64,000 nt of DNA from Halopseudomonas sabulinigri (GTDB lineage: Bacteria; Pseudomonadota; Gammaproteobacteria; Pseudomonadales; Pseudomonadaceae). The notes under the pieces are model-generated. The model was not told the origin of the DNA. It saw only the letters and a program-made list of their open reading frames with translations, and made no database searches. The stretch lies in NCBI RefSeq assembly GCF_900105255.1, contig NZ_LT629763.1, positions 310,001-374,000 of the forward strand, in the 5' to 3' direction. The translations under genes and the position numbers were made by a program. This document shows, one piece after another, positions 3,595 through 19,499 of the stretch; positions within the stretch are counted from its first letter, which is position 1, and every line of letters starts with the position of its first letter.

Positions 3595-3625
3595 TGTGCG
3601 CGCTCCGCCTGAAGCCAAAACAAAA

Positions 3626-3662
3626 AAAGGCGTCCCCCTGCTCACGCAGTAGGGACGCCTTT
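3626..3662 (-). terminator. Intrinsic terminator (attenuator) before the FAD reductase gene
   Basis: Minus-strand stem AAAGGCGTCCC / GGGACGCCTTT with an inner CTGC/GCAG helix, followed by a seven-T tract. It lies about 30 nt upstream of the ATG, inside the leader and not after a gene, as expected for an attenuator. Confidence 0.85.
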
Positions 3663-3685
3663 GTCCAGGTCCTGTTCGATCAGGA
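3626..3685 (-). promoter_or_regulatory. ANTAR (NasT) antitermination leader of the nitrate reductase operon
   Basis: On the minus strand, hairpin P1 is TCCTG-AUCGAA-CAGGA (3670-3685). Three nucleotides later comes P2, GGAC-AAAGGC-GTCC (3653-3666). Both hexaloops have A at position 1 and G at position 4, the ANTAR target signature. The 3' part of P2 is also the 5' arm of the terminator at 3626-3662, so P2 and the terminator exclude each other. A further AACGGC loop on a weak four-pair stem lies at 3695-3708. NasT antitermination of the equivalent nirBD-nitrate reductase operon is known in P. aeruginosa. Its operation here is inferred from structure. Confidence 0.8.
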
Positions 3686-3748
3686 AGGCAGGGTCATCGC
3701 CGTTGACAGCCCCGCATTGTATTCGTTGATTAACGATGCAGTGTTTAA

Positions 3749-3764
3749 AGCAGGTTCCGTGCCA
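3749..3764 (-). promoter_or_regulatory. Sigma-54 promoter for the nitrate reductase operon
   Basis: Minus-strand TGGCAC-N5-CTGCT, matching the sigma-54 -24/-12 consensus TGGCAC-N5-TTGCA/T except at one base. Transcription would start near 3738, giving a leader of about 145 nt that holds P1, P2 and the terminator. It lies in the gap after the stop of the kinase gene. Confidence 0.7.
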
Positions 3765-3866
3765 CTCCGTTCAACCCCGCTATTCAGGCGCCTGGCGCAA
3801 GCAGCAGAGGCCTGCGGTCGCGGTTTTCTGCACTGTCATGCAGCGCTTCGCACCGGCTTGGGGCGG

Positions 3867-5537
3867 TTATTGATTCAGCAGCAGGATCGCCAGCAGCAGG
3901 TTCAGCGCCAGTGATGCCATGGCGAAGTAACGCCAGAAGCGCAGTGGATCGCGCTGCAGCAGCGGCTGATGGCTGGTGTGTAACGGTCGGCTCTCGCCCT
4001 GGGTCGATTCCAGTAACCATTGCTCGGCGGTTTCAAAACGCTCCTTGGGCTCAAGCGCGACGGCGCGCAGCAACAGGTCGTCGAGCCAGGGCGGCACGTC
4101 GGGACGGTAGCGGCTAGGGGGCACCGGCTTGCCGAAACGCGGCCGCTGGAAGGCTTCGACTTCCCCATAGGGGTAGTGGCCGGTCAGCAGGAAGTAAAGG
4201 GTAACGCCGGTGCTGTAGATGTCTTGCTGGGCGTGCGGTTCGGCGCCGTTCAGCACCTCGGGCGCCATATAGCTCGGGGTGCCCGGTGCCTTGCCGTCCT
4301 GCGCTTGGGTCAGGCCTGGGCAGTAGGTCAGGCCGAAATCGAGCAGGCGTAGCTGGCCGTCGTCACCCTGGTGCAGATTTTCCGGCTTGATGTCGCGATG
4401 AATGAGGTTGCGCTGATGCAGTTTGCCAACCGCCTTGATCAACTGCGCCGCCAGTTCACGCCACGCGGGAATGCTCAGCAGACCGTGCTGCCGACGTTGC
4501 TCCTCAAGTGTCACGCCAGCGTATTCGCGCATCACGTAATACAGGTGGCGACGTTGTGGCAGCGGGTGCAGCTCGGGGGTAAAGGCACTGGCCACGCGGC
4601 GCATAAACCATTCCTCCAGCACCAGCGCCTGGCGCGCCTGCTCGTCGTTGTGCAGCGCGGCGGGCAGGGTTTTCAGCAGCCAGGTCTGGTTTAGTTGATC
4701 TCGTACCCGGTAAAGCACCGATTGGCGCGACTCTGCGCGCACGTTCACTACCTCCCAGCCTTCAAAGTCCTGTCCGGTCTTGAGCAAGGGGGGCAGTGCG
4801 CGTTCATCCAGCGGAGCCAGCGCATCGCCCAGCGACGCCTCGGGTAGCGCATCGACCCGCACCAGCAGGGCGCTGGCGTTGTCCTGGCTGCCGGCACGAT
4901 AGGCCCGTTGCAGCAGCTGCGCGCAGGCCTGGTCGAAGGGCTGCTCCTGCAGGCACTGCAGAATCTCGTTGTCTTTCAGCACTGCCCAGATGCCATCGCT
5001 GACGATCAGTAGTTGGTCGTCGGCGCGCAGCTCACCCTCGCTGTAATCCATCAGCAGGTGTTCATCCAGGCCCAGGGCACGCTTGAGTACGTGCTCCATG
5101 CCCGGCTGCTCCCACACGTGCTCGGTGGTCAGGTGGCGCAGTTTGCCGCTGCGTAGCAGGTAGGCGCGGCAATCGCCGATGTGCGCCAAAGTGTAGCGAC
5201 AGCCGCGCAGCACTAGCGCGGTCAGCGTTGTAAGTAGTGGCTGGCCACCGCCATTGGCGCGCAGCCAGCGATTGTGGGCGGTCAGCAGCTTGTCCAGCGC
5301 GTGTGGAATGGCCCAGGTTTCTGGCGTGGAGTAGTAGTCCAGTGCCAATGCCTGCAGGGTGGCGTTGGCGGCCAGTCCGCCATCCTGACACTGGCTGACG
5401 CCATCGGCCACGGCCAGCAGGTGGCCCTTGCTGGTGGCCAGTCGGGGCGCCGGCGTGACAACCCGCACGGCATCCTGATTTTGCGCGCGCGGGCCCTTGT
5501 CACTGGCTTCGCTGATACTCAGCTGCAGCGTCGTCAT
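3867..5537 (-). CDS. PP2C-type phosphatase fused to Ser/Thr protein kinase, tail-anchored
   Basis: A 556-aa bifunctional protein. Residues about 1-240 are a PP2C phosphatase with metal motifs NQDA, AVADGVS, HIGDCRAY, VSDGIW and SQDNAS. Residues about 260-520 are a Hanks-type kinase: invariant Lys in WLLKTL, catalytic loop HRDIKPENL, DFGLTY and the APE-type segment SYMAPEVL. A hydrophobic C-terminal helix (residues about 535-553) should anchor it in the inner membrane with both domains cytoplasmic. It starts 3 bp after the nitrate transporter stop, so the two are co-transcribed. A homologue sits in the same place in P. aeruginosa (PA1782). The substrates are unknown. A paralogue is at 23460-25190, next to the nitrite transporter. 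Confidence 0.88.
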   Translation of the reverse strand: MTTLQLSISEASDKGPRAQNQDAVRVVTPAPRLATSKGHLLAVADGVSQCQDGGLAANATLQALALDYYSTPETWAIPHALDKLLTAHNRWLRANGGGQPLLTTLTALVLRGCRYTLAHIGDCRAYLLRSGKLRHLTTEHVWEQPGMEHVLKRALGLDEHLLMDYSEGELRADDQLLIVSDGIWAVLKDNEILQCLQEQPFDQACAQLLQRAYRAGSQDNASALLVRVDALPEASLGDALAPLDERALPPLLKTGQDFEGWEVVNVRAESRQSVLYRVRDQLNQTWLLKTLPAALHNDEQARQALVLEEWFMRRVASAFTPELHPLPQRRHLYYVMREYAGVTLEEQRRQHGLLSIPAWRELAAQLIKAVGKLHQRNLIHRDIKPENLHQGDDGQLRLLDFGLTYCPGLTQAQDGKAPGTPSYMAPEVLNGAEPHAQQDIYSTGVTLYFLLTGHYPYGEVEAFQRPRFGKPVPPSRYRPDVPPWLDDLLLRAVALEPKERFETAEQWLLESTQGESRPLHTSHQPLLQRDPLRFWRYFAMASLALNLLLAILLLNQ

Positions 5538-5540
5538 CTA

Positions 5541-6752
5541 TCAGACCCGCGCAGCGGTCATGGACGAAGCGCCCCAGGTAGTGCGCCAGCGACGCTTGAC
5601 ATTGAACAGGCCAAACCAGGCCAGAATACCCAGGCTGGCGAACAGCCACAGGCCGAGTTGATAGTCGCCGGTGTGCTGTTTAATGGCGCCCAGACCGGCT
5701 GCCAAAATAAAACCGCCCACGCCGCCGGCCATACCGATTAACCCGGTCATCACACCGATTTCGCGGAAAAAGCGCTGTGGCACCAACTGGAACACAGCGC
5801 CGTTGCCTGCGCCGAGGCCCAGCATGGCGGTCACGAAGAAGGTCAGCGCGGCGTAGGAGCTGGACAGGTTGAAGCCGACAATGGCGATGCAAAGCGCGGC
5901 AATGCCGTACATGAACAGCAGCGAGCGAATGCCGCCAATCCGATCCGCCAGCGCGCCACCGAGGGGGCGCATCAGGCTGCCGGCCATGACGCAGGCCGCG
6001 GTGTAGTAGCCCGCGGTAACCGGGTTCAGGCCGTACTGATCGCTGAAGTAGCCGGGCAGGGCGCTGGCCAGGCCGATAAACCCGCCAAAGGTGACGCTAT
6101 AGAAGAACATGAACCACCAGCTGTCGACGTCCTTCAGTGCCATGGCGTAGTCCTTCAGCGCCTTGGGTGCAGGGCGGTTTGGTGAGTTCTTGGCCAGGGT
6201 GATAAACAGGATCAGGGTGATGCCCAGCGGAATCAGCGCCAGACCGAATACGTTCTGCCAGCCGAACAGGTAGGCCAGGCCGGGCGCGAAGATCGCGGCC
6301 ATCACGGTGCCCGAGTTACCGGCACCAGCGATGCCCATGGCTTTGCCCTGATGCTCCGGTGGATACCACTGTGAGGCCAGTGGCAGTGCTACCGCGAAGG
6401 AGGCACCGGCGAAGCCCAGGCCGAGGCCGAGCAGCAGGGTGTGCTCGTAGGTATTGACGCCCAGTTGCCAGGCCAGCAGCAGGGTACAGATGACCACTAC
6501 TTGGCCGATGATGCCGGCAGTTTTCGGGGACAGGCGATCGGCCATAAAGCCCATTGCCAGCCGCAACAGCGCGCCGGCGAGAATCGGTGTGGCGACCATA
6601 ATGCCCCGTTCTTGTGCGCTGAGGCTCAAATCGGTGGCAATTTGCACCGCAAGCGGGCCGAGCAGGTACCAGACCATGAAGCTCAGGTCGAAGTACAGGA
6701 AGGCGGAAAACAGGGTCGGTGTGTGGCCGGCTTTCCAGAAGCTCGTGTTCAT
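5541..6752 (-). CDS. MFS nitrate/nitrite transporter (NarK/NasA family)
   Basis: A 403-aa, about 12-helix major facilitator of the nitrate/nitrite porter family. The family signature segment around FAVALPLASQWYPPEHQGKA and AGNSGTVMAA is near residues 120-155, and a second Gly-rich signature (AGNGAVFQLVPQRFFREIG) is near residue 315. Predicted role: nitrate uptake for assimilation. The ATG is preceded by GAGAGGACTGCCAT (AGAGGA). The gene lies downstream of nasT behind its own sigma-54 element and attenuator, and 3 bp upstream of the PP2C-kinase gene. P. aeruginosa calls the equivalent gene nasA. I leave the symbol empty to avoid confusion with the nitrate reductase. Confidence 0.92.
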   Translation of the reverse strand: MNTSFWKAGHTPTLFSAFLYFDLSFMVWYLLGPLAVQIATDLSLSAQERGIMVATPILAGALLRLAMGFMADRLSPKTAGIIGQVVVICTLLLAWQLGVNTYEHTLLLGLGLGFAGASFAVALPLASQWYPPEHQGKAMGIAGAGNSGTVMAAIFAPGLAYLFGWQNVFGLALIPLGITLILFITLAKNSPNRPAPKALKDYAMALKDVDSWWFMFFYSVTFGGFIGLASALPGYFSDQYGLNPVTAGYYTAACVMAGSLMRPLGGALADRIGGIRSLLFMYGIAALCIAIVGFNLSSSYAALTFFVTAMLGLGAGNGAVFQLVPQRFFREIGVMTGLIGMAGGVGGFILAAGLGAIKQHTGDYQLGLWLFASLGILAWFGLFNVKRRWRTTWGASSMTAARV

Positions 6753-6815
6753 ATGGCAGTCCTCTCAGCGCCATCAGGCGCGCTTTGCAGCATGTACTAC
6801 CCGCTACTTCGGGGC

Positions 6816-6867
6816 AAAAAAAAACGTCACCCCCAACCCCAGAGTAGCTCCGGGCCGAGGATGACGT
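6816..6867 (-). terminator. Attenuator terminator before the nitrate transporter
   Basis: Minus-strand hairpin with outer stem ACGTCA/TGACGT and an inner CCCGGAG/CTCTGGG helix, followed by T9. It is located in the leader about 64 nt before the ATG. Confidence 0.8.
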
Positions 6868-6900
6868 CGTTGTCTGTGTAGGCAGCCGCCGTTGGCTGCC
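6816..6900 (-). promoter_or_regulatory. ANTAR (NasT) antitermination leader of the nitrate transporter
   Basis: On the minus strand, P1 is a perfect 7-bp stem, GGCAGCC / GGCTGCC, capped by hexaloop AACGGC (6881-6900). P2 is GAC-AACGAC-GTC (6863-6874). The P2 3' arm shares bases with the terminator arm ACGTCA (6862-6867), which pairs with TGACGT (6824-6829) and runs into nine T residues. Both loops fit the A-x-x-G ANTAR rule. P1 would sit at the very 5' end of the RNA made from the sigma-54 element just upstream. Confidence 0.85.
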
Positions 6901-6912
6901 TGCTATAGACCA

Positions 6913-6928
6913 AGCAGGATGCGTGCCA
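6913..6928 (-). promoter_or_regulatory. Sigma-54 promoter for the nitrate transporter
   Basis: Minus-strand TGGCAC-N5-CTGCT between the nasT stop (6940) and the leader hairpins. The predicted start near 6902 places hairpin P1 almost at +1. Because it lies downstream of nasT, the transporter can be transcribed separately from nasST. Confidence 0.7.
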
Positions 6929-6939
6929 TCAGTCGCTGC

Positions 6940-7518
6940 TTATTCCCCGAGCATCTCGTGCATGGCGATGATTTGCTCGGCCACCTGAATCAGCTTTTGC
7001 TGTCGGCTCATGGCTTGGCGACGCATCAGCGTATGGGCTTCGGCCTCATCACAGTTTTTCATTTTCATCAGCAGGCCCTTGGCCTTCTCTACCCGCTTGC
7101 GCTCATTCAGCTGTTGTTCACGGGCCTGCAGTTCGGCGCGCAGCTGCTGGTCGGTCTCGAAGCGTGCCATGGCGACATCGAGTATAGCCTTGAGGCGCGA
7201 GCTCTCTACGCCTTCGACAATGTAGGCACTGACGCCGGACTGTATCGCCTTGCGCATCACGGCCGGGTCTTGCTCATCAGTGAACAGGGCAATGGGGTGG
7301 GGCAAGTCGCGGCTGAACAGGCAGACCTGCTCCATCACGTCGCGTCCGGGGGAGTCGCTGTCGATCAGAATGACGTCCGGCTTGGCGCTTTGGACCCGTG
7401 CCGGCAGGTCGATGGTCAGGCCCGATTCGTCTATAACCTCAAAGCCTGCTTCCAGCAGGGCGCCCTTGAGCTTTCCGACTTTTTTTACGGTGTCGTTTAT
7501 CAGCAGAATGCGCAGCAT
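6940..7518 (-). CDS. nasT: Nitrate-responsive ANTAR antiterminator NasT
   Basis: A 192-aa protein with a receiver-like N-terminal domain (residues about 1-120; LLINDT, ILIDSDSPGRD) and a C-terminal ANTAR RNA-binding domain (about 130-190; RKRVEKAKGLLMKMKNCDEAEA ... AMSRQQKLIQVAEQI). NasT binds leader RNAs with paired A-x-x-G hexaloop hairpins and prevents termination when nitrate frees it from NasS. It lies 31 bp downstream of nasS on the same strand. Four candidate target leaders are visible in this window, upstream of nasS, the transporter, the nitrate reductase operon and nirBD. Confidence 0.95.
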   Translation of the reverse strand: MLRILLINDTVKKVGKLKGALLEAGFEVIDESGLTIDLPARVQSAKPDVILIDSDSPGRDVMEQVCLFSRDLPHPIALFTDEQDPAVMRKAIQSGVSAYIVEGVESSRLKAILDVAMARFETDQQLRAELQAREQQLNERKRVEKAKGLLMKMKNCDEAEAHTLMRRQAMSRQQKLIQVAEQIIAMHEMLGE

Positions 7519-7549
7519 GATTTATCAAACAATCCTTGATGACAAAATG

Positions 7550-8767
7550 TCAGTTGGCCTGCTGCAGGGCAGCGGTATCGGTCATGGCGTGCAGTTCAAA
7601 GCTGCCGGCGTAGGCAGCGGGGTCGCGGCCATCCCAAACCTTGCCGTCCATCAGGGTGCTGCTGCGTAGCGGGCTCTCGGGCACGCTGATGCCCAGCGCG
7701 CTTGCGGCTTCACGGTACAGCTGCAGTTGCTGCACCTGGCTGGCGAGGCCCTGATAGTCGGGCTCTTCGCGTAGCAGGCCCCAGCGGCGGAACTGGGTCA
7801 TGAACCAGGTGCCGTCAGAGAGGTAGGGCACGTTTACCTCGCCATCGCCGAAAAAGCGCAGCCGGTGCTCGTCGCGCCAGGCGTTACCGCGGCCATCGAC
7901 GTACTCGCCGAGCATGCGCGGTTGCAGTGACTCCAGGGGCGCGTTGACATAGTCAGCGCCACTGATCAGCTGTGCGGTACTGCGGCGGTTATCGTCGTTC
8001 TCGTCAATGAAGCGGCTGGCATCGAGAATCGACATGATCAGCCCACGCGCCGCGTTGGGGCACTCTTCGACGAAGCGTCGAGTGGCGCAGAGCACCTTTT
8101 CCGGGTGGTTCGGCCAGACCGACTGGCTGGTGGCCAGGGTGTAACCCATGCCGTCTTCAATCGCGTGGGCGCCCCAGGGCTCGCCCGCACAGAAGCCATC
8201 AATGCGGCGTGCGCGCAGATGCTCGACCATCAGCGAAGGGGGGACCACGCGGGTATCCACGTCGCGCAGCGGGTGAATGCCGTTGGCGGCCAGCCAGTAA
8301 TACAGCCACATGGCATGCGTGCCGGTAGGGAAGGTTTGGGCCAGGCAAAGGCGGGTATTGCCCAGCAGGGCGCGTTCAACCAGCGCCTGGCTGCTGTCGA
8401 CACCGGTTTCCAGCATGGCCTGCGACAGGTTGATGCTCTGACCGTTCTGGTTCAGGCCCATCAGTACCGCCATGGACGTGGCGGCACTGCCAAGGCCGAG
8501 CTGAATACCGTAGGCCAGACCATAAAGACCTTGCGCTGCATCCAGCTCGCCGTTAAGCAGACGGTCGCGCAGTGCAGACCAGGACTGCTGACGTTGCAGG
8601 TTGAGGGTCAGCCCGTACGGCTGCGAAAAGCCCTGGGTGGCGGCGACGATCAGCGAGGCTGAGTCGGTCAGTGGCATGAAGCCCAGATTCAGAGTGTGTT
8701 TTTCCGGTGCATCGCTGCCATTGACCCAGGCGAGCACGTCGTCGCGTTGCTGGTCTGTCTGCTTCAT
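7550..8767 (-). CDS. nasS: Cytoplasmic nitrate sensor NasS (NrtA-like)
   Basis: A 405-aa protein related to the nitrate-binding proteins NrtA/NasF of ABC transporters (LGFMPLTDSASLIVAATQGF near the start; FCAGEPWGAHAIE near residue 215). It has no signal peptide or lipobox, as expected for NasS, which stays in the cytoplasm and holds NasT inactive until nitrate or nitrite binds. The Shine-Dalgarno is AGGA before the ATG. Its own mRNA has a sigma-54 element and a NasT-type leader with terminator, which suggests that the sensor operon is itself nitrate-controlled. Confidence 0.93.
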   Translation of the reverse strand: MKQTDQQRDDVLAWVNGSDAPEKHTLNLGFMPLTDSASLIVAATQGFSQPYGLTLNLQRQQSWSALRDRLLNGELDAAQGLYGLAYGIQLGLGSAATSMAVLMGLNQNGQSINLSQAMLETGVDSSQALVERALLGNTRLCLAQTFPTGTHAMWLYYWLAANGIHPLRDVDTRVVPPSLMVEHLRARRIDGFCAGEPWGAHAIEDGMGYTLATSQSVWPNHPEKVLCATRRFVEECPNAARGLIMSILDASRFIDENDDNRRSTAQLISGADYVNAPLESLQPRMLGEYVDGRGNAWRDEHRLRFFGDGEVNVPYLSDGTWFMTQFRRWGLLREEPDYQGLASQVQQLQLYREAASALGISVPESPLRSSTLMDGKVWDGRDPAAYAGSFELHAMTDTAALQQAN

Positions 8768-8789
8768 TTGTCAGTCCTGCTGCTGCATG

Positions 8790-8822
8790 AAAAAAGCGCC
8801 GCACACCTGCCGGCAGCGGCGC
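8790..8822 (-). terminator. Attenuator terminator before nasS
   Basis: Minus-strand 7-bp GC stem (GCGCCGC/GCGGCGC), 13-nt loop, followed by T6, about 22 nt upstream of the nasS ATG. Confidence 0.8.
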
Positions 8823-8876
8823 ATCTTAACCACAGATGCGGCTTGCTGCCAGCCAGGGGAACGACGCCGTTGTCGT
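8790..8876 (-). promoter_or_regulatory. ANTAR (NasT) antitermination leader of nasST
   Basis: On the minus strand, a 5-bp hairpin ACGAC-AACGGC-GTCGT (8861-8876) carries the A-x-x-G hexaloop. A larger hairpin follows, GGCAGC/GCTGCC (8812-8817 with 8845-8850) enclosing CGCATCT/AGATGCG (8820-8826 with 8834-8840). It shares bases with the 5' arm of the terminator GCGCCGC/GCGGCGC (8796-8802 with 8816-8822), so the two structures are mutually exclusive. A second clear A-x-x-G loop was not found here, unlike the other three leaders. Confidence 0.72.
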
Positions 8877-8916
8877 GGTCTGTGCCCCGGTTGCGAGGCG
8901 ATGGTGTCACGATACC

Positions 8917-8932
8917 AGCAAAGGTTGTGTCA
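8917..8932 (-). promoter_or_regulatory. Sigma-54 promoter for nasST
   Basis: Minus-strand TGACAC-N5-TTGCT, one base from the sigma-54 consensus. It begins immediately after the stop codon of the upstream stress-protein gene. The predicted start is near 8906, upstream of the leader hairpins. Confidence 0.65.
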
Positions 8933-8933
8933 G

Positions 8934-9362
8934 TCAGCGCACTATCATCACCGAGCGTTTGGACTGCTGCACTACGCGCAGGGCATTGGTGCCCAGCAGG
9001 TAGTCTTCCAGCCGCTTGCGTTTGTGCGAGGCCATGATGATCAGGTCGACGTCGATCTTCTTGGCGACCCGCAAGATCGCCTCGTAGGCCTTGCCGTCAG
9101 CGACGATGCGCTGCACTTTCACATCCTTGGGTACATGCTCCTTGACGAAGGCGCGCAGGTTGTCGGTCATGGTCTTCTTGGCCTGGTCGGCGTATTCCTT
9201 GGGAAAGAACCCCCCGACCAGCGGCATGCCAAAATCCGGCAGTACGGTAATCACATGCAGCGAGGCATTGTAGGTCTGACAGAAGTTCAGCGCGGTCGGC
9301 AGCGCCTTGCTCCAAGACTGTTTATGGTTCAGATCGATCGGCAGCAGAATTTTGTTGTACAT
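8934..9362 (-). CDS. Universal stress protein associated with a TRAP transporter (TeaD-like)
   Basis: A 142-aa UspA-fold protein: N-terminal strand YNKILLPIDL and the ATP-binding region LIIMASHKRKRLEDYLLGTNALRVVQQSKRSVMIVR, with the G-x2-x9-G-S/T pattern in a relaxed form. It starts 10 bp after the TRAP permease stop, so it is the last gene of the transporter operon. By analogy with TeaD of Halomonas it may adjust transporter activity. That is inference from position. Confidence 0.88.
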   Translation of the reverse strand: MYNKILLPIDLNHKQSWSKALPTALNFCQTYNASLHVITVLPDFGMPLVGGFFPKEYADQAKKTMTDNLRAFVKEHVPKDVKVQRIVADGKAYEAILRVAKKIDVDLIIMASHKRKRLEDYLLGTNALRVVQQSKRSVMIVR

Positions 9363-9372
9363 GGCCGTTACC

Positions 9373-11976: not shown

Positions 11977-12177
11977 GGCTGCGCGCTACTCCTGTTCTTT
12001 TATCTTTTGGCGTCACTAGTGACGAAGGTGGCAGACCCGGTTGGGGTTACTGCCCGGCACACCGGAAAGCTCTTGTGGAGCACCGGTTACTGCAATAATT
12101 CGCCGGCAAAGGGGCCAACGAAACGAAAAGTGTGCGCCTGGGCGCGTTTGGCATCGAAAATGCCGAGACTGAAACAA
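11977..12177. other. Gap between TAXI binding protein and TRAP permease
   Basis: About 200 bp without a credible gene. It precedes the permease on the minus strand and would carry its leader if the permease is transcribed through the hairpin at 12178-12203. No clear promoter was recognised. Confidence 0.5.
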
Positions 12178-12203
12178 GCGAGCCGCCCCGTGGGGCGGCT
12201 CGC
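12178..12203 (-). terminator. Strong hairpin after the TAXI binding protein gene
   Basis: A perfect GCGAGCCGCCCC / GGGGCGGCTCGC stem 10 bp beyond the stop codon, with only a short T-rich tail (TTGTTT). It may partly terminate or protect the binding-protein mRNA, so that binding protein is made in excess over permease. Confidence 0.7.
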
Positions 12204-12213
12204 AAGGGGTGGC

Positions 12214-13185
12214 TTACATCCAGCCACGCTCTTTGTAGTAACGTACTGCGCCGTCATGCAGCGGTGCAGACAGGCCTTCCTTGATCATCTGCTCTTCCTT
12301 CAGGGTGGCGAAGGCGGGGTGCAGGCGCTTGAAGCGATCAAAGTTCTCGAACACCGCCTTGACGGTCTGGTATACGGTTTCATCGCTGACCTGATCAGAG
12401 GCAACCAGGGTCGCACGTACGCCGAAGGTGTTTACGTCTTCGTCGTTGCCGCGATACAGGCCACCGGGGATAACGGCCTTGGCGTAGTAGGAACGGTCAC
12501 CCACCAGCTTGTCGATCTCTGGCCCGTCAACCGATACCAATACTGAGTCGACGGTAGTGGTGGCTTCCTGAATGGAGCCATTCGGGTGGCCTGCCACGTA
12601 AACCATGGCATCGACGTTGTTGTCACCCAAAGCAGCCGCTTGTTCGGCAGCGCCCAGTTCGGATGCCAGGGAGAAGTCCTTCACGGTCCAGCCAAGGGCC
12701 TCCAGCACCACGTCCATGGTGTCGCGCTGGCCGGAGCCTGGGTTACCGATGTTGACGCGCTTGCCTTTCAGATCCTTGACGCCGGTGATGTCAGCGTCGC
12801 GACGGGCAACGATAGTCAGCGGCTCGCCGTGCAGGGCGAAGAGTGCACGCATACCTTCGAAGGGGCCATCGGCCTGGAAGTTCTGCACGCCCTCATAGGC
12901 TTTGTACTGCACATCGGACTGCACTACGCCCATGTCCATCTCGCCGCCACGAATGGCGTTCACGTTGGCTACCGAACCGCCGCTGGAAGGCGCGTTGCAG
13001 CGAATGCCATGCTCCTCACTGTTACGGTTGAGCAGACGACACACGGATTGGCCGACGACGTAGTACACACCGGTCTGGCCACCGGTACCTATGGTGACAA
13101 ACTCTTCCGCGACAGCAGGGGTGGCAGCGAGCGAGGCATAGCCAATGGTGGCCGAGAACAGCATGGCTAGGGATTTGCGCTTCAT
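12214..13185 (-). CDS. TAXI-family TRAP transporter solute-binding protein
   Basis: A 323-aa periplasmic protein with a cleavable signal peptide (MKRKSLAMLFSATIGYASLA, then TPAVAEE). The TAXI hallmark start FVTIGTGGQTGVYYVVG follows directly, and DLKGKRVNIGNPGSGQRDT lies near residue 140. It delivers the substrate to the fused permease encoded downstream on the same strand. A good Shine-Dalgarno, AAAGGAGT, lies 9 nt before the ATG. Confidence 0.94.
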   Translation of the reverse strand: MKRKSLAMLFSATIGYASLAATPAVAEEFVTIGTGGQTGVYYVVGQSVCRLLNRNSEEHGIRCNAPSSGGSVANVNAIRGGEMDMGVVQSDVQYKAYEGVQNFQADGPFEGMRALFALHGEPLTIVARRDADITGVKDLKGKRVNIGNPGSGQRDTMDVVLEALGWTVKDFSLASELGAAEQAAALGDNNVDAMVYVAGHPNGSIQEATTTVDSVLVSVDGPEIDKLVGDRSYYAKAVIPGGLYRGNDEDVNTFGVRATLVASDQVSDETVYQTVKAVFENFDRFKRLHPAFATLKEEQMIKEGLSAPLHDGAVRYYKERGWM

Positions 13186-13471
13186 GTGAAATGACTCCTT
13201 TTTCTTTTCTGATTATTCATGACTGCAGATTGATGGACCGCAAGCCAAGGGGTTGATTCAATGCTGTTGTGCAGCACAGGAAGCAATTAATAGCGCTAAG
13301 GTAATAGCGTTCACTTTGTTGAATGAACAGTGTAGTGGATGATTTCAGTTTCACCCGAACATACCCGGCGATGGCAGCAGGGGCAAGCGGCGATGCGGGT
13401 TGTTGCGGCGCGGTGTGCAATGCTGCGCACGCCGCGTACGAACTGCAGGCGGCGATGCCCAAGACGTGGCC
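13186..13471. other. Gap between rnt and the TAXI binding protein gene
   Basis: About 286 bp. It must hold the promoter of the TAXI-TRAP operon in the T-rich part next to 13186-13330. Towards rnt there is an imperfect GC-rich hairpin (GCGGCG...CGCCGC, around 13400-13435) on the minus strand after the rnt stop, without a T tract. An 81-codon open frame here has no family signal. Confidence 0.5.
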
Positions 13472-14152
13472 TCAGTCTACCGGCGGCCAGCCGCCCATCT
13501 CACGCCAGCGATTGACGATGGTGCAGAACAGTTCGGCGGTTTTTTCCGTGTCGTAGCGGGCGGAATGCGCTTCCCGGCCATCGAAGTCCATACCGGCAGC
13601 GTTGCAGGCCTTGGCCAGCACCGTCTGACCGTAGGCGAGGCCGCCCAAGGTCGCGGTATCGAAGCACGAAAAGGGGTGAAAGGGGTTGCGCTTGATCTGA
13701 ATGCGCTCCACCGCGGCGTTGACAAAGCCGAGGTCGAAGAAAGCGTTGTGGCCAACCAGTACCGCACGCTTGCAGCCGGCTGATTTTACGGCTTTGCGCA
13801 CATGCTTGAAGATTTCCGTAATCGCGTGCTCCTCGCTGACCGCCTGGCGCAGGGGGTGGTCCAACTTGATGCCGGTAAACTCCAGCGCAGCCGCCTCAAT
13901 GTTGGCGCCCTCAAAGGGTTCGACGCGAAAGAAGTGGGTCTGATCGGGATAGACCATGCCCTCGTCGTCCATGCTGATGGTGGTCGCGGCAATTTCCAGC
14001 AGCGCGTCGGTCGCAGCATTGAAACCGCCGGTCTCGACGTCTATGACAACCGGCAGAAAGCCCCGGAAGCGGTAAGCCATCGGCGATTTTGGTTTGCCGG
14101 ACGCTGGCGCGTCCATGCCATCGCTGTCACTGTCAAAGTCGAACTCACTCAC
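13472..14152 (-). CDS. rnt: Ribonuclease T
   Basis: A 226-aa DEDDh 3'-5' exonuclease that trims tRNA and other stable RNA 3' ends. Exo I motif DVETGG (Asp and Glu) is near residue 38, exo [11 protein letters not shown] near 135, and exo [13 protein letters not shown] (His and Asp) near 198. The start codon is GTG (14150-14152) with GGATT 5 nt upstream. An acidic N-terminal extension of about 25 residues precedes the nuclease domain. It follows pyrC in the same direction after 30 bp, the order found in P. aeruginosa (pyrC-rnt). Confidence 0.96.
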
Positions 14153-14182
14153 GCGTAATCCTTAGCATCGCAAAGAGGGATA

Positions 14183-15217
14183 TCAGGCCAGGCGCCACTG
14201 CAGGGTTTCGCCTGCGCGCAGCGGAATGACGTTCTGATCACCGAAGGGTAGCTGTTCTGGCGCCTGCCAGCTATCGCGCAGCAGGGTTATCTGCTCGCTG
14301 TTGCGGGGCAAGCCGTAGAAGTCCGGCCCGTGGAAACTGGCAAAGCCTTCCAGCTTGTCGAGTGCGCCCAGGCTGTCGAAGGCTTCTGCGTAGAGTTCAA
14401 TGGCCGCGTAGGCGGTGTAGCAGCCGGCACATCCACAGGCCGCTTCCTTGGCGTGGCGCGCATGGGGCGCCGAATCGGTACCGAGAAAGAACTTGCTGGA
14501 GCCGGAAGCGACTATGTCACACAGGGCCTGCTGATGCTTCTCGCGCTTGAGGATCGGCAGACAGAACAGGTGCGGACGAATGCCGCCGACCAGCATATGA
14601 TTGCGGTTGAACAACAGGTGATGTGCCGTGATAGTGGCGCCGACGTTGGCCGGAGCCTGCTTGACGAACTCAACTGCGTCGGCGGTGGTGATGTGCTCAA
14701 ATACGATTTTGAGAGTAGGGAAGCGTTCTACCACCTTGACCAACTGCTGATCGATAAAGGCCTTTTCGCGGTCGAAAATATCGACCTCGGCGTGGGTTAC
14801 TTCACCGTGTACCAGCAGCGGCATGCCGACCTCGGCCATGGCTTCCAGCGCGGGGTAGATATTCTCCAGCGCGGTCACGCCGGACTGCGAGTTGGTGGTT
14901 GCACCTGCGGGGTAAAGTTTGGCGGCAATCGCCTGACCGCTGAGCTTGGCTTCGCGGACAATCTCGGGGCTGGTCTGATCGGTGAGATAGAGCACCATCA
15001 ACGGCTCAAACTGTGAGCCGGCAGGGCGGGCGGCGAGGATGCGCGCCTTGTAACCTGCCGCTTCCTGTGCGTCGCGCACTGGCGGAACCAGATTCGGCAT
15101 GATGATGGCGCGACCAAAGGTGCGCGCAGCATCGGCAACGGTGTGGCCCAAAACCTCCCCATCGCGAAGGTGAATATGCCAGTCGTCTGGCCGGGTGAGC
15201 GTGAGGCGATCAGTCAT
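14183..15217 (-). CDS. pyrC: Dihydroorotase
   Basis: A 344-aa zinc amidohydrolase that closes carbamoyl-aspartate to dihydroorotate in pyrimidine synthesis. The metal motif [10 protein letters not shown] is near residue 13, the metal-bridging Lys region [13 protein letters not shown] near 100, HGEVTH near 140, FEHITT near 178 and the catalytic Asp region LGTDSAPH near 248. The start at 15217 ([14 protein letters not shown]) gives the normal length; longer in-frame starts reach into motY leader DNA and are unlikely. Divergent from motY. Confidence 0.96.
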
Positions 15218-15442
15218 GCAGGGAGCTTCCAGAGCGGGATAATGCCGCAATGCTACCGTAAACGCCGGGTGTTTCACACAGCCTCAGGGTGCGCAATCTA
15301 CTGTCGTCGGGCGGTCGGCTGCCGGAATTTGCGGATTTATCCGTCCTGCATGGTAAAGAATTGCCGCGCGCCGCCGATGAGACTGGCAAGAGAGATTAGC
15401 GACGCCGACCGCGACCCGGCGTCAGATGAGGTGAACAGCGTG

Positions 15443-16291
15443 ATGACGCGATCCTGTCCGGCCCTGTTGCTGGTGCTGGCGCTACCAACCCAGGCACTGA
15501 CCTTCCAGACCCGTATGGAAGACGTGCAGTGGCAGGTGGCGGGCGATGAATTTGCCTGCCGTTTGACCCAGTCGGTAGCAGGTTATGGCGAGGCCAGCTT
15601 TGTACGCCATGCGGGCGAGCCGGCAGCCTTCGAGCTGAAGGCCTGGGATAATCCCATGAGTCCGGGCTCGGCGCAGGTTTATAACGAAGCGCCGCCCTGG
15701 CGCCCGGGCACCGCAGCCGTGCCGCTGGGGCAAGTGGCGGTAACCGGCGGTGCGGGCGTCATGCAGGTGCCTTATCAGCAGGCAGGGCGCATGCTTGCGG
15801 GTTTGGCCTCCGGGTTGCAACCGACCATTCAGCGCAGCGGATACGCGGGAAGCGCACCGGTACGGGTGGTGGTTTCCAGTGTTGGTTATCAACAGGCCTG
15901 GCTGGATTTTCAGAAGTGCATCAGCGGGCTGTTGCCAGTCAGTTACGCGCAAATCTCCGAGAGCCTGATCAGCTTTGCATCCGGTGGCGACAAGCTCAAC
16001 CCGCAGGCCAAAGCCATGCTGGATGCGGCGGTGATGTATATAAAGGCGGATGAAGACATAACCGAGATTCTGCTCGACGGCCATTCCGACAATCAGGGCA
16101 ATCGCCTGGATAACCGCGAACTGTCGCGTCAACGTGTACTGGCCGTAAAGGATTACCTGGTCGAGCAGGGCGTGAATGAGGATCTGTTTGCCATGCGCTT
16201 TCATGGCGACCGCTATCCGGTGGCGAGCAATCGCACCGAGCAGGGGCGCGCCGCCAATCGACGGGTGATGCTGCGTCTGGAGAAGGATTGA
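15443..16291 (+). CDS. motY: Flagellar motor protein MotY (OmpA-like)
   Basis: About 282 aa. A signal peptide (MTRSCPALLLVLALPTQA) is followed by the MotY N-terminal domain that docks to the flagellar basal body. The C-terminal OmpA-like peptidoglycan-binding domain (residues about 165-280) carries LDGHSDNQGN and ELSRQRVLAVKDYL. In Pseudomonas MotY forms the T-ring that anchors the MotAB/MotCD stators. The start at ATG 15443 gives a clean signal peptide; the longer open frame upstream does not. It lies between pyrC and argG, as PA3526 does in P. aeruginosa, which supports the name over other OmpA-like proteins. Confidence 0.88.
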   Translation: MTRSCPALLLVLALPTQALTFQTRMEDVQWQVAGDEFACRLTQSVAGYGEASFVRHAGEPAAFELKAWDNPMSPGSAQVYNEAPPWRPGTAAVPLGQVAVTGGAGVMQVPYQQAGRMLAGLASGLQPTIQRSGYAGSAPVRVVVSSVGYQQAWLDFQKCISGLLPVSYAQISESLISFASGGDKLNPQAKAMLDAAVMYIKADEDITEILLDGHSDNQGNRLDNRELSRQRVLAVKDYLVEQGVNEDLFAMRFHGDRYPVASNRTEQGRAANRRVMLRLEKD

Positions 16292-16472
16292 GCCGGCTTT
16301 CCCGGATATCGCCGGGTTGTTCTGTTCCCGGCCTGCGATCGGCAGATTCCTGCCGCTGAGGCTATAAACTAGCGCCCACTCCTCTGTGATTCCTTGTGCC
16401 TAGGCGCTAGAATAGCTGCCTTTCGTCCGCTCCTGCGTGAGTGGCGGTACAGTCTTGTTAAGGGAGCTCCTC

Positions 16473-17690
16473 ATGGCAGAAGTCAATAAAGTCGTCCTCG
16501 CCTATTCTGGCGGCCTGGATACCTCGGTCATCCTCAAGTGGTTGCAGGAAACCTACAACTGCGAAGTGGTGACCTTCACCGCTGATCTGGGCCAGGGCGA
16601 AGAAGTAGAACCGGCGCGTGCCAAGGCTCAGGCCATGGGCGTGAAGGAAATCTACATTGACGATCTGCGTGAAGAGTTTGTACGTGACTTCGTGTTCCCG
16701 ATGTTCCGCGCCAATACCGTCTACGAAGGTGAGTACCTGCTGGGCACCTCCATTGCCCGTCCGCTGATTGCCAAACGGCTGATCGAGATCGCCAACGAAA
16801 CCGGCGCCGATGCCATTTCCCACGGTGCGACCGGCAAGGGTAATGACCAGGTACGTTTCGAGCTGGGCGCCTACGCGCTCAAGCCTGGCGTTAAAGTGAT
16901 TGCCCCCTGGCGCGAATGGGATCTGCTGTCGCGTGAGAAGCTGATGGACTACGCCGCCAAGCACGAGATCCCGATTGAGCGTCACGGCAAGAAGAAGTCG
17001 CCTTACTCGATGGACGCCAACCTGCTGCACATCTCCTATGAAGGTGGCGTGCTGGAAGACACCTGGGCCGAGCACGAAGAAGACATGTGGCGCTGGTCGG
17101 TCTCGCCGGAGAACGCCCCGGATCAGGCAACGTACATCGAGCTCAGCTACCAGAACGGCGACATCGTTGCCATCGACGGTAAAGAGATGAGCCCGGCCAC
17201 CGTGCTGGCTTATCTGAACAAGGTGGGTGGCGACAACGGCATCGGCCGTCTCGACATCGTCGAAAACCGCTTTGTCGGCATGAAGTCGCGCGGCTGCTAT
17301 GAAACCCCCGGCGGCACAATCATGCTCAAGGGCCACCGCGCCATCGAGTCCATTACTCTGGACCGTGAAGTCGCCCACCTGAAAGACAGCCTGATGCCCA
17401 AGTATGCCGAACTGATCTACAACGGCTTCTGGTGGAGCCCGGAGCGCGTCATGCTGCAACAGATGATTGATGCCTCTCAGGCCCAGGTAAACGGTGTTGT
17501 GCGCCTGAAACTCTACAAGGGCAACGTGGTCGTGGTCGGCCGCAAGTCGGATGACTCGCTGTTTGATGCCAACATCGCCACCTTTGAAGATGATGCCGGT
17601 GCCTACGACCAGGCCGATGCAGCCGGTTTCATCAAGCTGAACGCCCTGCGCATGCGCATTGCTGCCAACAAGGGCCGCAAGCTGCTCTAA
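16473..17690 (+). CDS. argG: Argininosuccinate synthase
   Basis: A 405-aa enzyme that joins citrulline and aspartate with ATP in arginine synthesis. The PP-loop [14 protein letters not shown] is at residues 7-20. [16 protein letters not shown] is near residue 117 and [15 protein letters not shown] near 180. The start at ATG 16473 follows an AGGGAG Shine-Dalgarno and gives the family's usual length. A strong terminator follows the stop. Confidence 0.98.
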
Positions 17691-17705
17691 GCTGCTGCTG
17701 GTACC

Positions 17706-17737
17706 AGCAAAACGCCCGGCTTGCCGGGCGTTTTGCT
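17706..17737 (+). terminator. Terminator after argG
   Basis: A perfect inverted repeat, AGCAAAACGCCCGGC / GCCGGGCGTTTTGCT, with a TT loop. It begins 15 bp after the argG stop and includes a T4 run in the 3' arm. Confidence 0.9.
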
Positions 17738-17804
17738 GTCAGGCTGGCAGAACTTTCAGGAAGCTTGTAGCTTTACTCTTATCCTTCAAGCAAAGGCTGC
17801 GATC

Positions 17805-18188
17805 ATGCGAATTCTTCACACCATGCTGCGGGTCGGTAATCTGGAAAAGTCCATCGCCTTCTATACCGAGGTGCTGGGGATGACTCTGCTGCGCCGCAAG
17901 GACTATCCGGAAGGGCGCTTTACCCTGGCCTTTGTCGGCTACGGTAATGAGGCCGAGCATACCGCGCTAGAACTCACCCATAACTGGGACACCAGCGAGT
18001 ATGATCTGGGTAGCGGCTACGGACATATCGCCATTGAAGTGCTGGATGTGTACAAGGCCTGTGAGCAGATAACGTCGGCGGGCGGCAATGTGGTGCGCGC
18101 GCCGGGGCCGATGAAACATGGACATAGCGTGCTGGCCTTCGTTGAAGATCCGGATGGCTACCGCATCGAACTGCTGTGCAAAAAATGA
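17805..18188 (+). CDS. gloA: Lactoylglutathione lyase (glyoxalase I)
   Basis: A 127-aa vicinal-oxygen-chelate enzyme that converts the methylglyoxal-glutathione hemithioacetal to S-lactoylglutathione. Metal ligands are visible in MRILHTMLR (His5), ALELTHNWD (Glu near 57), GYGHIAIEV (His near 75) and GYRIELL (Glu near 123). The short bacterial form suggests the Ni-type enzyme. The start at ATG 17805, after AAAGG, is chosen because an upstream in-frame ATG would add an unrelated N-terminus. It lies next to argG as gloA1 does in P. aeruginosa. Confidence 0.95.
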   Translation: MRILHTMLRVGNLEKSIAFYTEVLGMTLLRRKDYPEGRFTLAFVGYGNEAEHTALELTHNWDTSEYDLGSGYGHIAIEVLDVYKACEQITSAGGNVVRAPGPMKHGHSVLAFVEDPDGYRIELLCKK

Positions 18189-18226
18189 CGTAAAACGGCC
18201 CGCAGGGCATTCAGGGAAGTACGGGC

Positions 18227-19105
18227 ATGATATGGATGCTGTTCATCGCCATAGTGGTACTTTCGGCTTTCGGGCTTTACCGCCTGCGCCGAGTGCGTCA
18301 GCGCGCAAGACATGAACAGCGCTTGCAGGCCATAGTGCAGATAGGCCTGTTGCGCCAGTTGCTGGAGCAGGTGCAGCGTCATCGCGGCCTGTCGTTTGGC
18401 GCCATGTCGGGCGAGCACACCCTGGAAGCACGTCGTTGGTCGGTGCATCAACAACTGTTGCAGTTGCTCAAGGTGATTGCCGAGCATGAAGCCACCTTGT
18501 ACTGGTATGACAGCTGGCACCAGACGCGTGATCTCTGGCAGCAGATAGAGGCCGGGTTCGAGCATGAAAGTGCCGAGCACCTGCTGACGCTGCACAACAG
18601 CATGACCGCCAGCCTGCTGGACACCATAGAAGCGCTGGCCCATCGTTTTGATCTGGTGTGCCTCGGGCGGCTCGCGCCTCAGGCCGAAGGGCTGTGGCTG
18701 GAACTACTGCAGAACATCGAGCTGATAGGGCAGAGCCGTGCAGTGGGTACTGGCATCGCTGCCAACCGCCAGAATCTGCCGGTATGGCGCGAATTGCTGC
18801 AATCGTTGAGCGATCAGATCAACGACCAAGCCTACGCGGTGCTTGCGCGCCTGATCTCCGATCCTGATTTGCGGGTGCTGGTCAGCCAGCCGGTGCGTGA
18901 TGCAGAGGACGCGCTGGACGTGCTGCTGGAGAATATCCGCGCGTTGCTGGAACGCCAGCGTGAGCCGCGCGTGCATTCGGTAGAGTTCTTCCAGTTGGCG
19001 ACCCGCGCGATCAGTGCGCAGTTGCTGCTGGTAGACCTTCTGCTGGAACGTCTGGCGTTGGCCAACGGCGCAGCCAGGTCGACATCGTCCCCGACTGAAG
19101 GCTAA
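18227..19105 (+). CDS. Membrane-anchored helical protein, possibly NIT-like
   Basis: A 292-aa protein of unassigned family. One N-terminal transmembrane helix (MIWMLFIAIVVLSAFGLY) is followed by an Arg-rich stretch and about 250 residues of predicted helix. The segment LLRQLLEQVQRHRGLSFGAMSG (in two parts: LLRQLLEQVQ, RHRGLSFGAMSG) resembles the opening of nitrate/nitrite-sensing (NIT) domains, where a helix ends in ERG-S/L. The likeness is weak, and there is no HAMP, kinase or cyclase domain. It ends about 200 bp before the sigma-54 element of nirBD. It could be a nitrate sensor, a chemotaxis-like accessory protein, or neither. Confidence 0.6.
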   Translation: MIWMLFIAIVVLSAFGLYRLRRVRQRARHEQRLQAIVQIGLLRQLLEQVQRHRGLSFGAMSGEHTLEARRWSVHQQLLQLLKVIAEHEATLYWYDSWHQTRDLWQQIEAGFEHESAEHLLTLHNSMTASLLDTIEALAHRFDLVCLGRLAPQAEGLWLELLQNIELIGQSRAVGTGIAANRQNLPVWRELLQSLSDQINDQAYAVLARLISDPDLRVLVSQPVRDAEDALDVLLENIRALLERQREPRVHSVEFFQLATRAISAQLLLVDLLLERLALANGAARSTSSPTEG

Positions 19106-19304
19106 CGGGGCTGCACCAAAACAGTGTTTTTTAGTGGTTTCGCACTCTTCTGGTTCATTTGTGCGTGCGATATCCGGTGGCTGTTGCGCGTGATAAAGAG
19201 TGTCAGTCAATTCTATTTTTGTTCTTGTAATGCATTGTAATATTTGATTTTTGTCGCCTTGTTCTGGCGTTCTGCTGCACACCTTTCCCTGCTTTTTTTC
19301 TTGC
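19106..19304. other. Upstream control region of nirBD
   Basis: AT-rich gap of about 200 bp before the sigma-54 element. A degenerate NtrC-like half-site pair (TGCACCA near 19112, then CAGTGTT) lies about 190 bp upstream of the promoter, in the usual range for an enhancer. The match is weak. Confidence 0.35.
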
Positions 19305-19320
19305 TGGCACGGCTATTGCT
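19305..19320 (+). promoter_or_regulatory. Sigma-54 promoter for nirBD
   Basis: TGGCAC-GGCTA-TTGCT, a full match to the -24/-12 consensus. The predicted start is near 19331, about 77 nt before the first leader hairpin and 217 nt before the nirB ATG. Confidence 0.85.
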
Positions 19321-19407
19321 TTTGTCTGTTCAGCGGCTATTTGTTTTCAGCCAATACTTCCCGTGGTCATCGTCGACCAGAGGCTCAGGCCGGGAAGCGG
19401 GTGCACC

Positions 19408-19499
19408 GAGCAACGACGCTCAGGCTAGCGCCCATCACAATTTATGAGTACCAGGCAACGGCGCCTGGAGTCCCTTGGGGACTCCAGGCGTTTTTTTTT
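19408..19499 (+). promoter_or_regulatory. ANTAR (NasT) antitermination leader of nirBD
   Basis: P1 is GAGC-AACGAC-GCTC (19408-19421). P2 is CCAGGC-AACGGC-GCCTGG (19451-19468). Both hexaloops have A at position 1 and G at position 4. The P2 3' arm GCCTGG is also part of the terminator 5' arm, so P2 and the terminator cannot form together. This is the clearest of the four leaders and lies 11 kb from nasT. Confidence 0.88.
19462..19499 (+). terminator. Attenuator terminator before nirB
   Basis: A perfect 13-bp stem (19462-19474 with 19478-19490), TTG loop and a nine-T run. It lies about 48 nt upstream of nirB and no gene ends just before it, so it acts in the leader. Confidence 0.93.

What the first reader, a model, noticed from the sequence alone, without database searches (positions are those of the whole stretch)
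3626..19499. Four nitrate/nitrite units share a sigma-54 plus ANTAR-attenuator control cassette
Upstream of nasS, the transporter, the nitrate reductase operon and nirB there is each time a TGGCAC/TGACAC-N5-(T/C)TGCT element, then a short hairpin with an A-x-x-G hexaloop (AACGGC, AACGAC, AAAGGC or AUCGAA), then a terminator with a T run of six to nine. In three leaders the last hexaloop hairpin shares bases with the terminator arm. NasT, the ANTAR protein, is encoded in the same window. NasT control of one such leader is known in Pseudomonas. The regulon-wide cassette across two separate clusters, including autoregulation of nasST, looks more extensive.
Basis: partly seen in the sequence, partly recalled or inferred. 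Interest (0 to 1): 0.8.

Follow-up and report, generated by a model that had tools for sequence, protein, structure and literature searches.

The report
Shared RNA switches on nitrate genes
Four sets of nitrate and nitrite genes in this bacterium each start with the same kind of RNA on/off switch, a known type of nitrate-sensing control, and comparison of related species suggests that two different sensor proteins can work these switches.

Summary
In a Halopseudomonas-like genome four leaders (nasS, nasA-type transporter, NADH-component/nitrate-reductase operon, nirB) carry a sigma-54-type site, A-x-x-G hexaloop hairpins and a terminator. The four sigma-54 strings are the window's only exact matches (0.27 expected). 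In all four, not three, the folded terminator uses the 3' arm of the last hexaloop hairpin. In this nasS leader the first hairpin lacks the A-x-x-G loop. Two leaders are Rfam families (P11, narK); ANTAR control of such genes is established. Beyond that: (1) the nasST leader's hairpin and T run occur in 70 of 79 NasT-selected Pseudomonadaceae loci, not in P. aeruginosa PA7; (2) the genome encodes a second nitrate-type ANTAR protein, NasR (NIT-ANTAR), and a fifth leader before a porin/nasFED-type operon; (3) in 37 congeners the hairpin-terminator is present with NasT and/or NasR and absent otherwise (nirB 13/13 versus 0/12), though the sigma-54 site stays; (4) where only NasR remains, leaders keep hairpin 2 and terminator but mostly lack hairpin 1 (found in 4/19 versus 35/35). 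NasT control is likely but not exclusive. Few independent evolutionary events support (3) and (4); there are no expression data.

The parts
8917..8932 (-). sigma-54-type site TGACACAACCTTTGCT of nasST (-24 GG reads GA)
   Evidence: a much looser sigma-54 pattern is met in 70 of 70 named loci with the nasS hairpin and T run
8884..8899 (-). nasS leader first hairpin GCCTC(GCAACC)GGGGC, loop not A-x-x-G
   Evidence: sequence; the P1 helix of relatives covaries
8861..8876 (-). nasS leader P2 ACGAC(AACGGC)GTCGT
   Evidence: core GAC..GTC in 47 of 47 aligned leaders, which were selected by that core
8790..8868 (-). nasS leader terminator using the P2 3' arm, then T6
   Evidence: MFE fold; covariation
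7550..8767 (-). nasS (NMT1_2 family binding protein)
   Evidence: and position next to nasT
6940..7518 (-). nasT (receiver-like plus ANTAR)
6913..6928 (-). sigma-54-type site TGGCACGCATCCTGCT of the nasA-type transporter
6880..6901 (-). nasA leader P1 AGGCAGCC(AACGGC)GGCTGCCT
6863..6874 (-). nasA leader P2 GAC(AACGAC)GTC
6816..6868 (-). nasA leader terminator and T9; overlaps P2
   Evidence: Rfam narK RNA RF03032 at 6861-6927
5541..6752 (-). NarK/NasA-type nitrate transporter (MFS)
   Evidence: TIGR00886 293 bits, cut-off 311.7
3749..3764 (-). sigma-54-type site TGGCACGGAACCTGCT
3688..3715 (-). NalA/P11 leader P1 with loop AACGGC
3670..3685 (-). NalA/P11 leader middle hairpin TCCTG(ATCGAA)CAGGA
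3653..3666 (-). NalA/P11 leader P2 GGAC(AAAGGC)GTCC
3622..3662 (-). NalA/P11 leader terminator and T7; overlaps P2
   Evidence: Rfam P11 RF00625 at 3629-3776
2332..3594 (-). NADH-dependent FAD component (here called nasB), first gene of the operon; a molybdopterin oxidoreductase (nitrate reductase) follows across the window edge
19305..19320 (+). sigma-54-type site TGGCACGGCTATTGCT of nirB
19364..19379 (+). nirB leader P1 TGGTC(ATCGTC)GACCA
19408..19421 (+). nirB leader second hairpin GAGC(AACGAC)GCTC, less conserved
19451..19468 (+). nirB leader P2 CCAGGC(AACGGC)GCCTGG
19460..19499 (+). nirB leader terminator and T9; overlaps P2
19548..22106 (+). nirB, followed by nirD 22106-22495, formate/nitrite channel 22589-23398 and a PP2C-kinase gene 23460-25190

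Best explanation
Each unit is an AND gate. Transcription starts at a sigma-54 promoter (nitrogen limitation) and by default stops at the leader terminator. When nitrate or nitrite is present, an ANTAR protein binds the A-x-x-G hexaloop hairpins; holding P2 closed denies the terminator its 5' arm, and RNA polymerase reads on. NasT (freed from NasS) is the likely main reader of the four window leaders, including its own, which would make a positive loop. NasR, a one-piece NIT-ANTAR sensor encoded elsewhere in the genome, probably reads the fifth leader (porin/nasFED-type operon) and can stand in for NasT on others, as in sister species without nasST. Shown here: the anatomy, P2/terminator exclusivity by folding, covariation (nasS, nasA), and that presence follows the ANTAR genes. 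Inferred: promoter use, protein binding, antitermination, autoregulation, and which protein reads which leader.
For: Exact sigma-54 strings only at the four leaders. Folds. nasS terminator helix: 92.6% of cells paired, 38 cells changed on both sides versus 12.1 in shuffles with all 51 non-redundant leaders plus the window (94.6%, 35 versus 11.0 in the 47-row subset); nasS P1 27 versus 9.9 (subset). nasA terminator 46 versus 20.4. Same-genus series: switch (P2 plus T run) at nirB in 13 of 13 genomes with NasT and/or NasR and 0 of 12 without; at nasB/NalA 22 of 22 versus 0 of 4; at nasA 19 of 19 versus 0 of 4, plus G002, also negative; sigma-54-like sites kept in the negatives. NasR beside NasT in this genome; NasR orthologues 50-84% identical over nearly full length in the other 17; nasST missing between usp and nasA in G001, G008, G011, G012, G023 with leaders kept. 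Fifth leader, in 12 of 12 genomes with the nasF-type gene. Published NasT/NalA and NasR mechanisms (passages).
Against: No expression, binding or mutant data here. The presence pattern rests on few independent events: 2 contrasts for nirB, 1 (starred branches) or 2 for nasB on the argG tree, sign test p 0.5 and 1. nasA P1/P2 pairs co-vary little (1 both-sided cell, not above shuffles); the nasS P2 core is invariant and gives no covariation. The window's nasS P1 lacks A1/G4 and its -24 element reads GA. In the genus G010 and G035 have nasT but no nasS leader, G031 and G019 have the nasS hairpin but no convincing sigma-54 site before it, and P. aeruginosa PA7 lacks the leader. No NtrC-site enrichment. 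P1 status at the nasFED-type leader runs opposite to the other leaders. In Bradyrhizobium, predicted NasT hairpins did not predict control: narK-bjgb-flp has them and rises in a nasT mutant (PMC6759348, passages).
Confidence: 0.8

Rival explanations
1. NasT alone reads all four window leaders and NasR is dedicated to the porin/nasFED-type operon. In species without nasST the other leaders are relics or leaky.
For: In genomes with both proteins the nasA, NalA and nirB leaders keep canonical P1 (part of 35/35) and the nasFED-type leader lacks it (0 of 6; four by script, two by eye). NasR goes with the nasF-type gene: 11 of 18 NasR genomes versus 1 of 19 without, Fisher p 0.0004, not corrected for relatedness.
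Against: P2 and T run are kept in 19 of 19 nasA, NalA and nirB leaders of NasR-only genomes, while ANTAR-less genomes lose them.
Confidence: 0.3
2. NasR is the main reader of all leaders where it is present and NasST only tunes it.
For: NasR carries its own nitrate-sensing domain and a perfect sigma-54 site TGGCACAGGTATTGCT lies before the gene (by eye). Leaders persist with NasR alone.
Against: nirB, nasB and nasA leaders also persist with NasT alone (G009, G010, G034, G035) and in NasT-selected Pseudomonadaceae loci (nasS 70 of 79, nasA 46 of 47, nasB 35 of 35), whose NasR status was not checked. P1 is mostly absent where NasT is absent.
Confidence: 0.15
3. The hairpin-terminators are ordinary terminators or sRNAs that happen to share loops, not regulated attenuators.
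For: Rfam types P11 as 'Gene' and names it an sRNA.
Against: P2/terminator overlap at 0.01 per shuffled window, covariation, and loss in ANTAR-less genomes with the promoter kept.
Confidence: 0.04

Closest known systems
NalA leader of nirBD in P. aeruginosa / P. putida (Rfam P11 RF00625; that P11 is NalA is recalled, not from a call)
   Same: The NADH-component/nitrate-reductase leader is an Rfam P11 match (76.8 bits, cut-off 70); a sigma-54/NtrC start and NasT antitermination of NalA are described in a review (PMC12830290, passages).
   Different: Here the operon starts with a short NADH component, and full-length nirB sits in a second cluster with its own leader that is not an Rfam hit.
narK RNA, Rfam RF03032
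   Same: The nasA leader is a hit (53.2 bits, cut-off 43.2). In S. stutzeri (L014) and A. vinelandii (L018) the nasS leader also just passes (44.6 and 43.7).
   Different: The window's nasS and nirB leaders and the fifth leader do not pass.
NasR / nasF leader of Klebsiella oxytoca
   Same: NIT-ANTAR protein; a nasFED-type ABC operon behind an ANTAR leader; C(A-x-x-G-x-x)G loops as selected by SELEX (PMC7496416, passages).
   Different: Here NasR coexists with NasST, and in NasR-only species most nas/nirB leaders lack a canonical first hairpin although Klebsiella NasR binds a single hairpin about 12 times more weakly.
EutV-type ANTAR dual-hairpin motif (Ramesh 2012, PMC3369931)
   Same: Second hairpin overlaps the terminator; A1/G4 hexaloops; nitrate/nitrite transporters and nitrite reductase were among predicted targets (passages).
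   Different: The main text has 0 occurrences of nasS or nasT (its supplements were not seen). A later paper credits it with recognising the motif in NasT systems too. Paired NasT/NasR genomes were not in the passages seen.

Membership tests
ANTAR-target leader (dual hairpin, antitermination) | Two hairpins with hexaloops, A at 1 and G at 4: nasA, NalA, nirB leaders | tested here: met
ANTAR-target leader (dual hairpin, antitermination) | Two hairpins with hexaloops, A at 1 and G at 4: nasS leader of this genome | tested here: not met
   only the second hairpin meets it; by script 46 of 70 named nasS leaders have a canonical P1
ANTAR-target leader (dual hairpin, antitermination) | Second hairpin mutually exclusive with an intrinsic terminator | tested here: met
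   covariation of the terminator helix in nasS and nasA
ANTAR-target leader (dual hairpin, antitermination) | Genome encodes an ANTAR protein | tested here: met
   two: NasT and NasR
ANTAR-target leader (dual hairpin, antitermination) | Signal-dependent protein binding and read-through | not testable with these tools
   needs RNA and protein
Rfam narK RNA RF03032 | Covariance-model score at or above 43.2 bits | tested here: met
   nasA leader only, 53.2 bits
Rfam P11 RF00625 | Covariance-model score at or above 70 bits | tested here: met
   nasB/NalA leader only, 76.8 bits
sigma-54 promoter | GG-N10-GC with TGGCAC/TTGCW context (consensus recalled) | tested here: met
   three of four canonical; nasS reads TGACAC
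sigma-54 promoter | RpoN and enhancer-protein dependence | not testable with these tools
   an NtrC-like consensus scan is at chance level: 57 found, 59.2 expected
NasR (NIT-ANTAR) | NIT domain plus C-terminal ANTAR | tested here: met
   PF08376 4.6e-54 and PF03861 3.5e-19 in L081:1450-2739, the same gene as L084:5259-6548

The most novel reading that the evidence does not exclude
Within one genus a nitrate regulon is being handed from one antiterminator (NasST) to another (NasR) on the same RNA switches. P2 with its terminator is the common handle; the first hairpin P1 is what NasT needs on the nas and nirB leaders and decays after nasST is lost, while the nasFED-type leader avoids P1 where NasT is present. 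P1 would then be the specificity determinant between two ANTAR proteins in one cell.
Probability: 0.33. Interest if true: 0.65.

Novelty: new variant of a known kind. Interest (0 to 1): 0.5.

Why it matters
ANTAR antitermination is a known nitrate control, but how an ANTAR protein tells its leader from another's is open. A genus with NasT-only, NasR-only, both and neither, with orthologous leaders, is a ready-made deletion series for that question. It also suggests that nasST autoregulation is common in Pseudomonadaceae but missing in the one P. aeruginosa genome examined (PA7), the species of the best-known NalA work.

Tried and rejected
A loose sigma-54 scan (2 mismatches) and an NtrC-site scan were at chance. 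The idea that NasR leaders are simply 'P2-only' was rejected as a general rule: 5 of 5 NasR-only genomes with the nasF-type gene have a canonical P1 at that leader. A look-alike inside the nasA coding region (window 5767-5805, minus strand) found by the genome pattern was taken as chance and not followed. The genome pattern gave 10 places against 8 for its backward control; four have the hairpin plus terminator (NalA, nasA, nirB, the fifth leader), judged by eye from matched strings and contexts. It cannot see nasS (gap too long), so further leaders with long terminators may have been missed.

Rows dropped and mended counts. My notes give 21/21 and 18/18 for nasB and nasA; the recount is 22/22 and 19/19. 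Alignment A1 held a wrong window slice and was replaced by A3. In L011, L038 and L071 the terminator arm is weak by eye. A permissive overlap test (7 or more pairs, one mismatch, G-U allowed, no shuffled control) passes 69 of 70 nasS, 46 of 47 nasA and 33 of 35 nasB loci; the fails are L073, L005, and L003 with L013. The nirB alignment (13 rows) was not scored for pairs. The P1 covariation and P2 count were not repeated on A5. Papers on NasT in P. putida and P. aeruginosa named in a review were not held and are not used. Structure prediction, fold search and RNA-model building were not used.
Full report
What is there. The window is G000:C1:310001-374000 of a 4.03 Mb genome. On the minus strand lie nasS, nasT, a NarK/NasA-type transporter, a PP2C-kinase gene, a short NADH-dependent FAD component and, across the edge, a molybdopterin oxidoreductase (nitrate reductase) and a tetrapyrrole methylase. 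On the plus strand lie nirB, nirD, a formate/nitrite channel and another PP2C-kinase gene.

The leaders. Hexaloop hairpins are as listed in the observation check. Two leaders are Rfam members: P11 at 3629-3776 and narK RNA at 6861-6927. In MFE folds every terminator uses the 3' arm of the last hexaloop hairpin, with z-scores from -3.1 to -7.1. A strict overlap scan gives two sites in the window and 0.01 per shuffle.

Relatives of the NasT locus. Of 80 named loci fetched by NasT (the best 80 of 347 relatives, so a sample near this genome), 79 allow the nasS upstream region to be read; 70 have GAC(A-x-x-G-x-x)GTC followed by a T run. The misses are L002, L003, L005 (P. aeruginosa PA7), L006, L008, L013, L023, L058 and L066. 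By the same kind of test it is 46 of 47 for nasA and 35 of 35 for nasB/nirB. Canonical P1 is found by script in 46 of 70 nasS, 46 of 46 nasA and 35 of 35 nasB leaders. In 52 nasS leaders (51 non-redundant loci plus the window) the terminator helix has 92.6% of cells paired and 38 both-sided changes against 12.1 in shuffles. In the 47-row subset P1 has 27 against 9.9 and the P2 core does not vary. In 20 nasA leaders the terminator covaries strongly; P1 and P2 hardly do.

The natural series. In 37 same-genus genomes, ANTAR domains occur in 22. Fourteen carry NasT and 18 NasR; orthology was confirmed by tblastn over nearly the full length for the 17 other NasR genes (50-84% identity) and for 12 of the 13 other NasT genes given, G013's NasT. 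G026's NasR lies in a 298-aa open frame. The NIT domain itself was scanned only in the window genome's protein. NirB of the window's type occurs in 25 genomes. The hairpin plus T run stands before it in 13 of 13 genomes with NasT and/or NasR (4 NasT only, 6 NasR only, 3 both) and in 0 of 12 without, although all 12 have a sigma-54-type site. For the nasB/NalA leader it is 22 of 22 versus 0 of 4; for nasA 19 of 19 versus 0 of 4, and G002 is a fifth negative, where a P2 remnant remains but no T run follows. For nasS it is 11 of 13 NasT genomes; G010 and G035 lack it and G032 is cut by a contig end. On an argG tree of 34 of the 37 genomes, ANTAR absence needs 4 changes; that gives 2 independent contrasts for nirB and 1 (starred branches) or 2 for nasB, none contrary, too few for significance. 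G002, sister of NasR-only G011 on a starred branch, would add one for nasA by eye. In a family sample of 158 genomes, 125 have the transporter, and of these G002, G029 and G036 have no ANTAR match (the rows for genomes with a match are complete in both listings). So ANTAR-less carriers were seen only in this genus.

NasR. The second ANTAR protein of the genome is a 429-aa NIT-ANTAR protein with TGGCACAGGTATTGCT upstream and no leader seen by eye. In G001, G008, G011, G012 and G023 the nasST pair is missing between usp and nasA (in G011 the kinase gene gives no hit either), and NasR is present. In G026, G027 and G030, usp lies directly before nasB; these assemblies are 81, 93 and 79% complete. 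In all of them the leaders that exist keep P2 and T run (19 of 19). A canonical P1 (C:G-closed A-x-x-G hexaloop within 110 nt upstream) is found in 35 of 35 nirB, nasB and nasA leaders of NasT genomes and 4 of 19 of NasR-only genomes; base-shuffled chance is 0 to 7% per leader. The NasR-only genomes are 8 and many are close relatives, so these are few independent losses.

Fifth leader. A genome-wide pattern for P2 plus terminator found the three known sites it can see and one more with the full anatomy: TGGCACGCGCCTTGCT, GGGC(AAAGGC)GTCC and a T7 terminator, before an outer-membrane porin-like gene, an NrtA/NasF-like binding protein, a nitrate ABC permease (TIGR01183, below its cut-off) and ATPase (TIGR01184, above it). 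The nasF-type gene is in 12 of 37 genomes, 11 of them with NasR, the twelfth (G024) 75% complete. All 12 have the P2-terminator before it or its porin. Canonical P1 there is present in 5 of 5 NasR-only genomes and in 0 of 6 with both (G000, G018, G019, G013 by script; G022 and G016 by eye), and not in G024. G000 and G018 have a P1-like stem with a loop that is not a canonical hexaloop.

Reading. The anatomy and the presence pattern fit ANTAR antitermination on sigma-54 transcripts very well. The P1 pattern suggests that P1 matters for which protein reads a leader, but the nasFED-type leader shows the rule is not simple.

Known versus new. NalA, narK RNA, NasT and NasR mechanisms, sigma-54 promoters before ANTAR genes, nitrate ABC transporters and nitrite reductase (PMC12316311, passages) and predicted ANTAR leaders on nitrate genes are in print. 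That NasTS is functionally replaced by NasR in Klebsiella is also stated (PMC5424462, passages), as is NtrC control of nasTS in Paracoccus (same). In Bradyrhizobium predicted NasT hairpins were a poor guide to NasT control (PMC6759348, passages). In the listings and passages seen (searches) I saw no description of an ANTAR leader on nasST in Pseudomonas or of NasT and NasR sharing leaders; most subscription papers, including two recent Pseudomonas ones, are not held, so this is weak.

Noticed in passing
L213:8680-8860 (-), G000:C1 about 1922680-1922860: Fifth sigma-54 plus ANTAR leader, before a porin-like gene and a nasFED-type nitrate ABC operon.
   Followed up: yes
L084:5259-6548 (-): NasR-type NIT-ANTAR gene with a perfect sigma-54 site and no leader; by eye a tRNA lies upstream and a cobalamin-type leader with a TonB receptor gene downstream (not run through Rfam or ARAGORN).
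   Followed up: partly
window 2332-3594 and 19548-22106: The nitrate-reductase operon here starts with a short NADH component while a full NirB of another lineage sits in a second cluster; other congeners have a long NirB in the first operon, about 35-37% identical to the window's NirB.
   Followed up: partly
window 3867-5537 and 23460-25190: Both nitrate/nitrite clusters contain a gene with PP2C-phosphatase and protein-kinase domains; role unknown.
   Followed up: no
L213:10448-10549 (+): Guanidine-I riboswitch at the start of an NMT1-like binding-protein gene, next to the nasFED-type operon.
   Followed up: no
L005 (P. aeruginosa PA7) upstream of nasS: A sigma-54-like site is there but no P2-terminator on nasST; this may explain why nasST autoregulation is not part of the P. 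aeruginosa picture.
   Followed up: partly
window 3670-3685 (-): A third A-x-x-G hairpin between P1 and P2 of the NalA leader, TCCTG(ATCGAA)CAGGA, is found in most but not all NasT genomes (not in G031, G019) and not listed in the NasR-only ones.
   Followed up: no
window 5767-5805 (-): Inside the nasA coding region GGC(AACGGC)GCT with a downstream CACAGCGC-TTTTT looks like the switch; probably chance.
   Followed up: no
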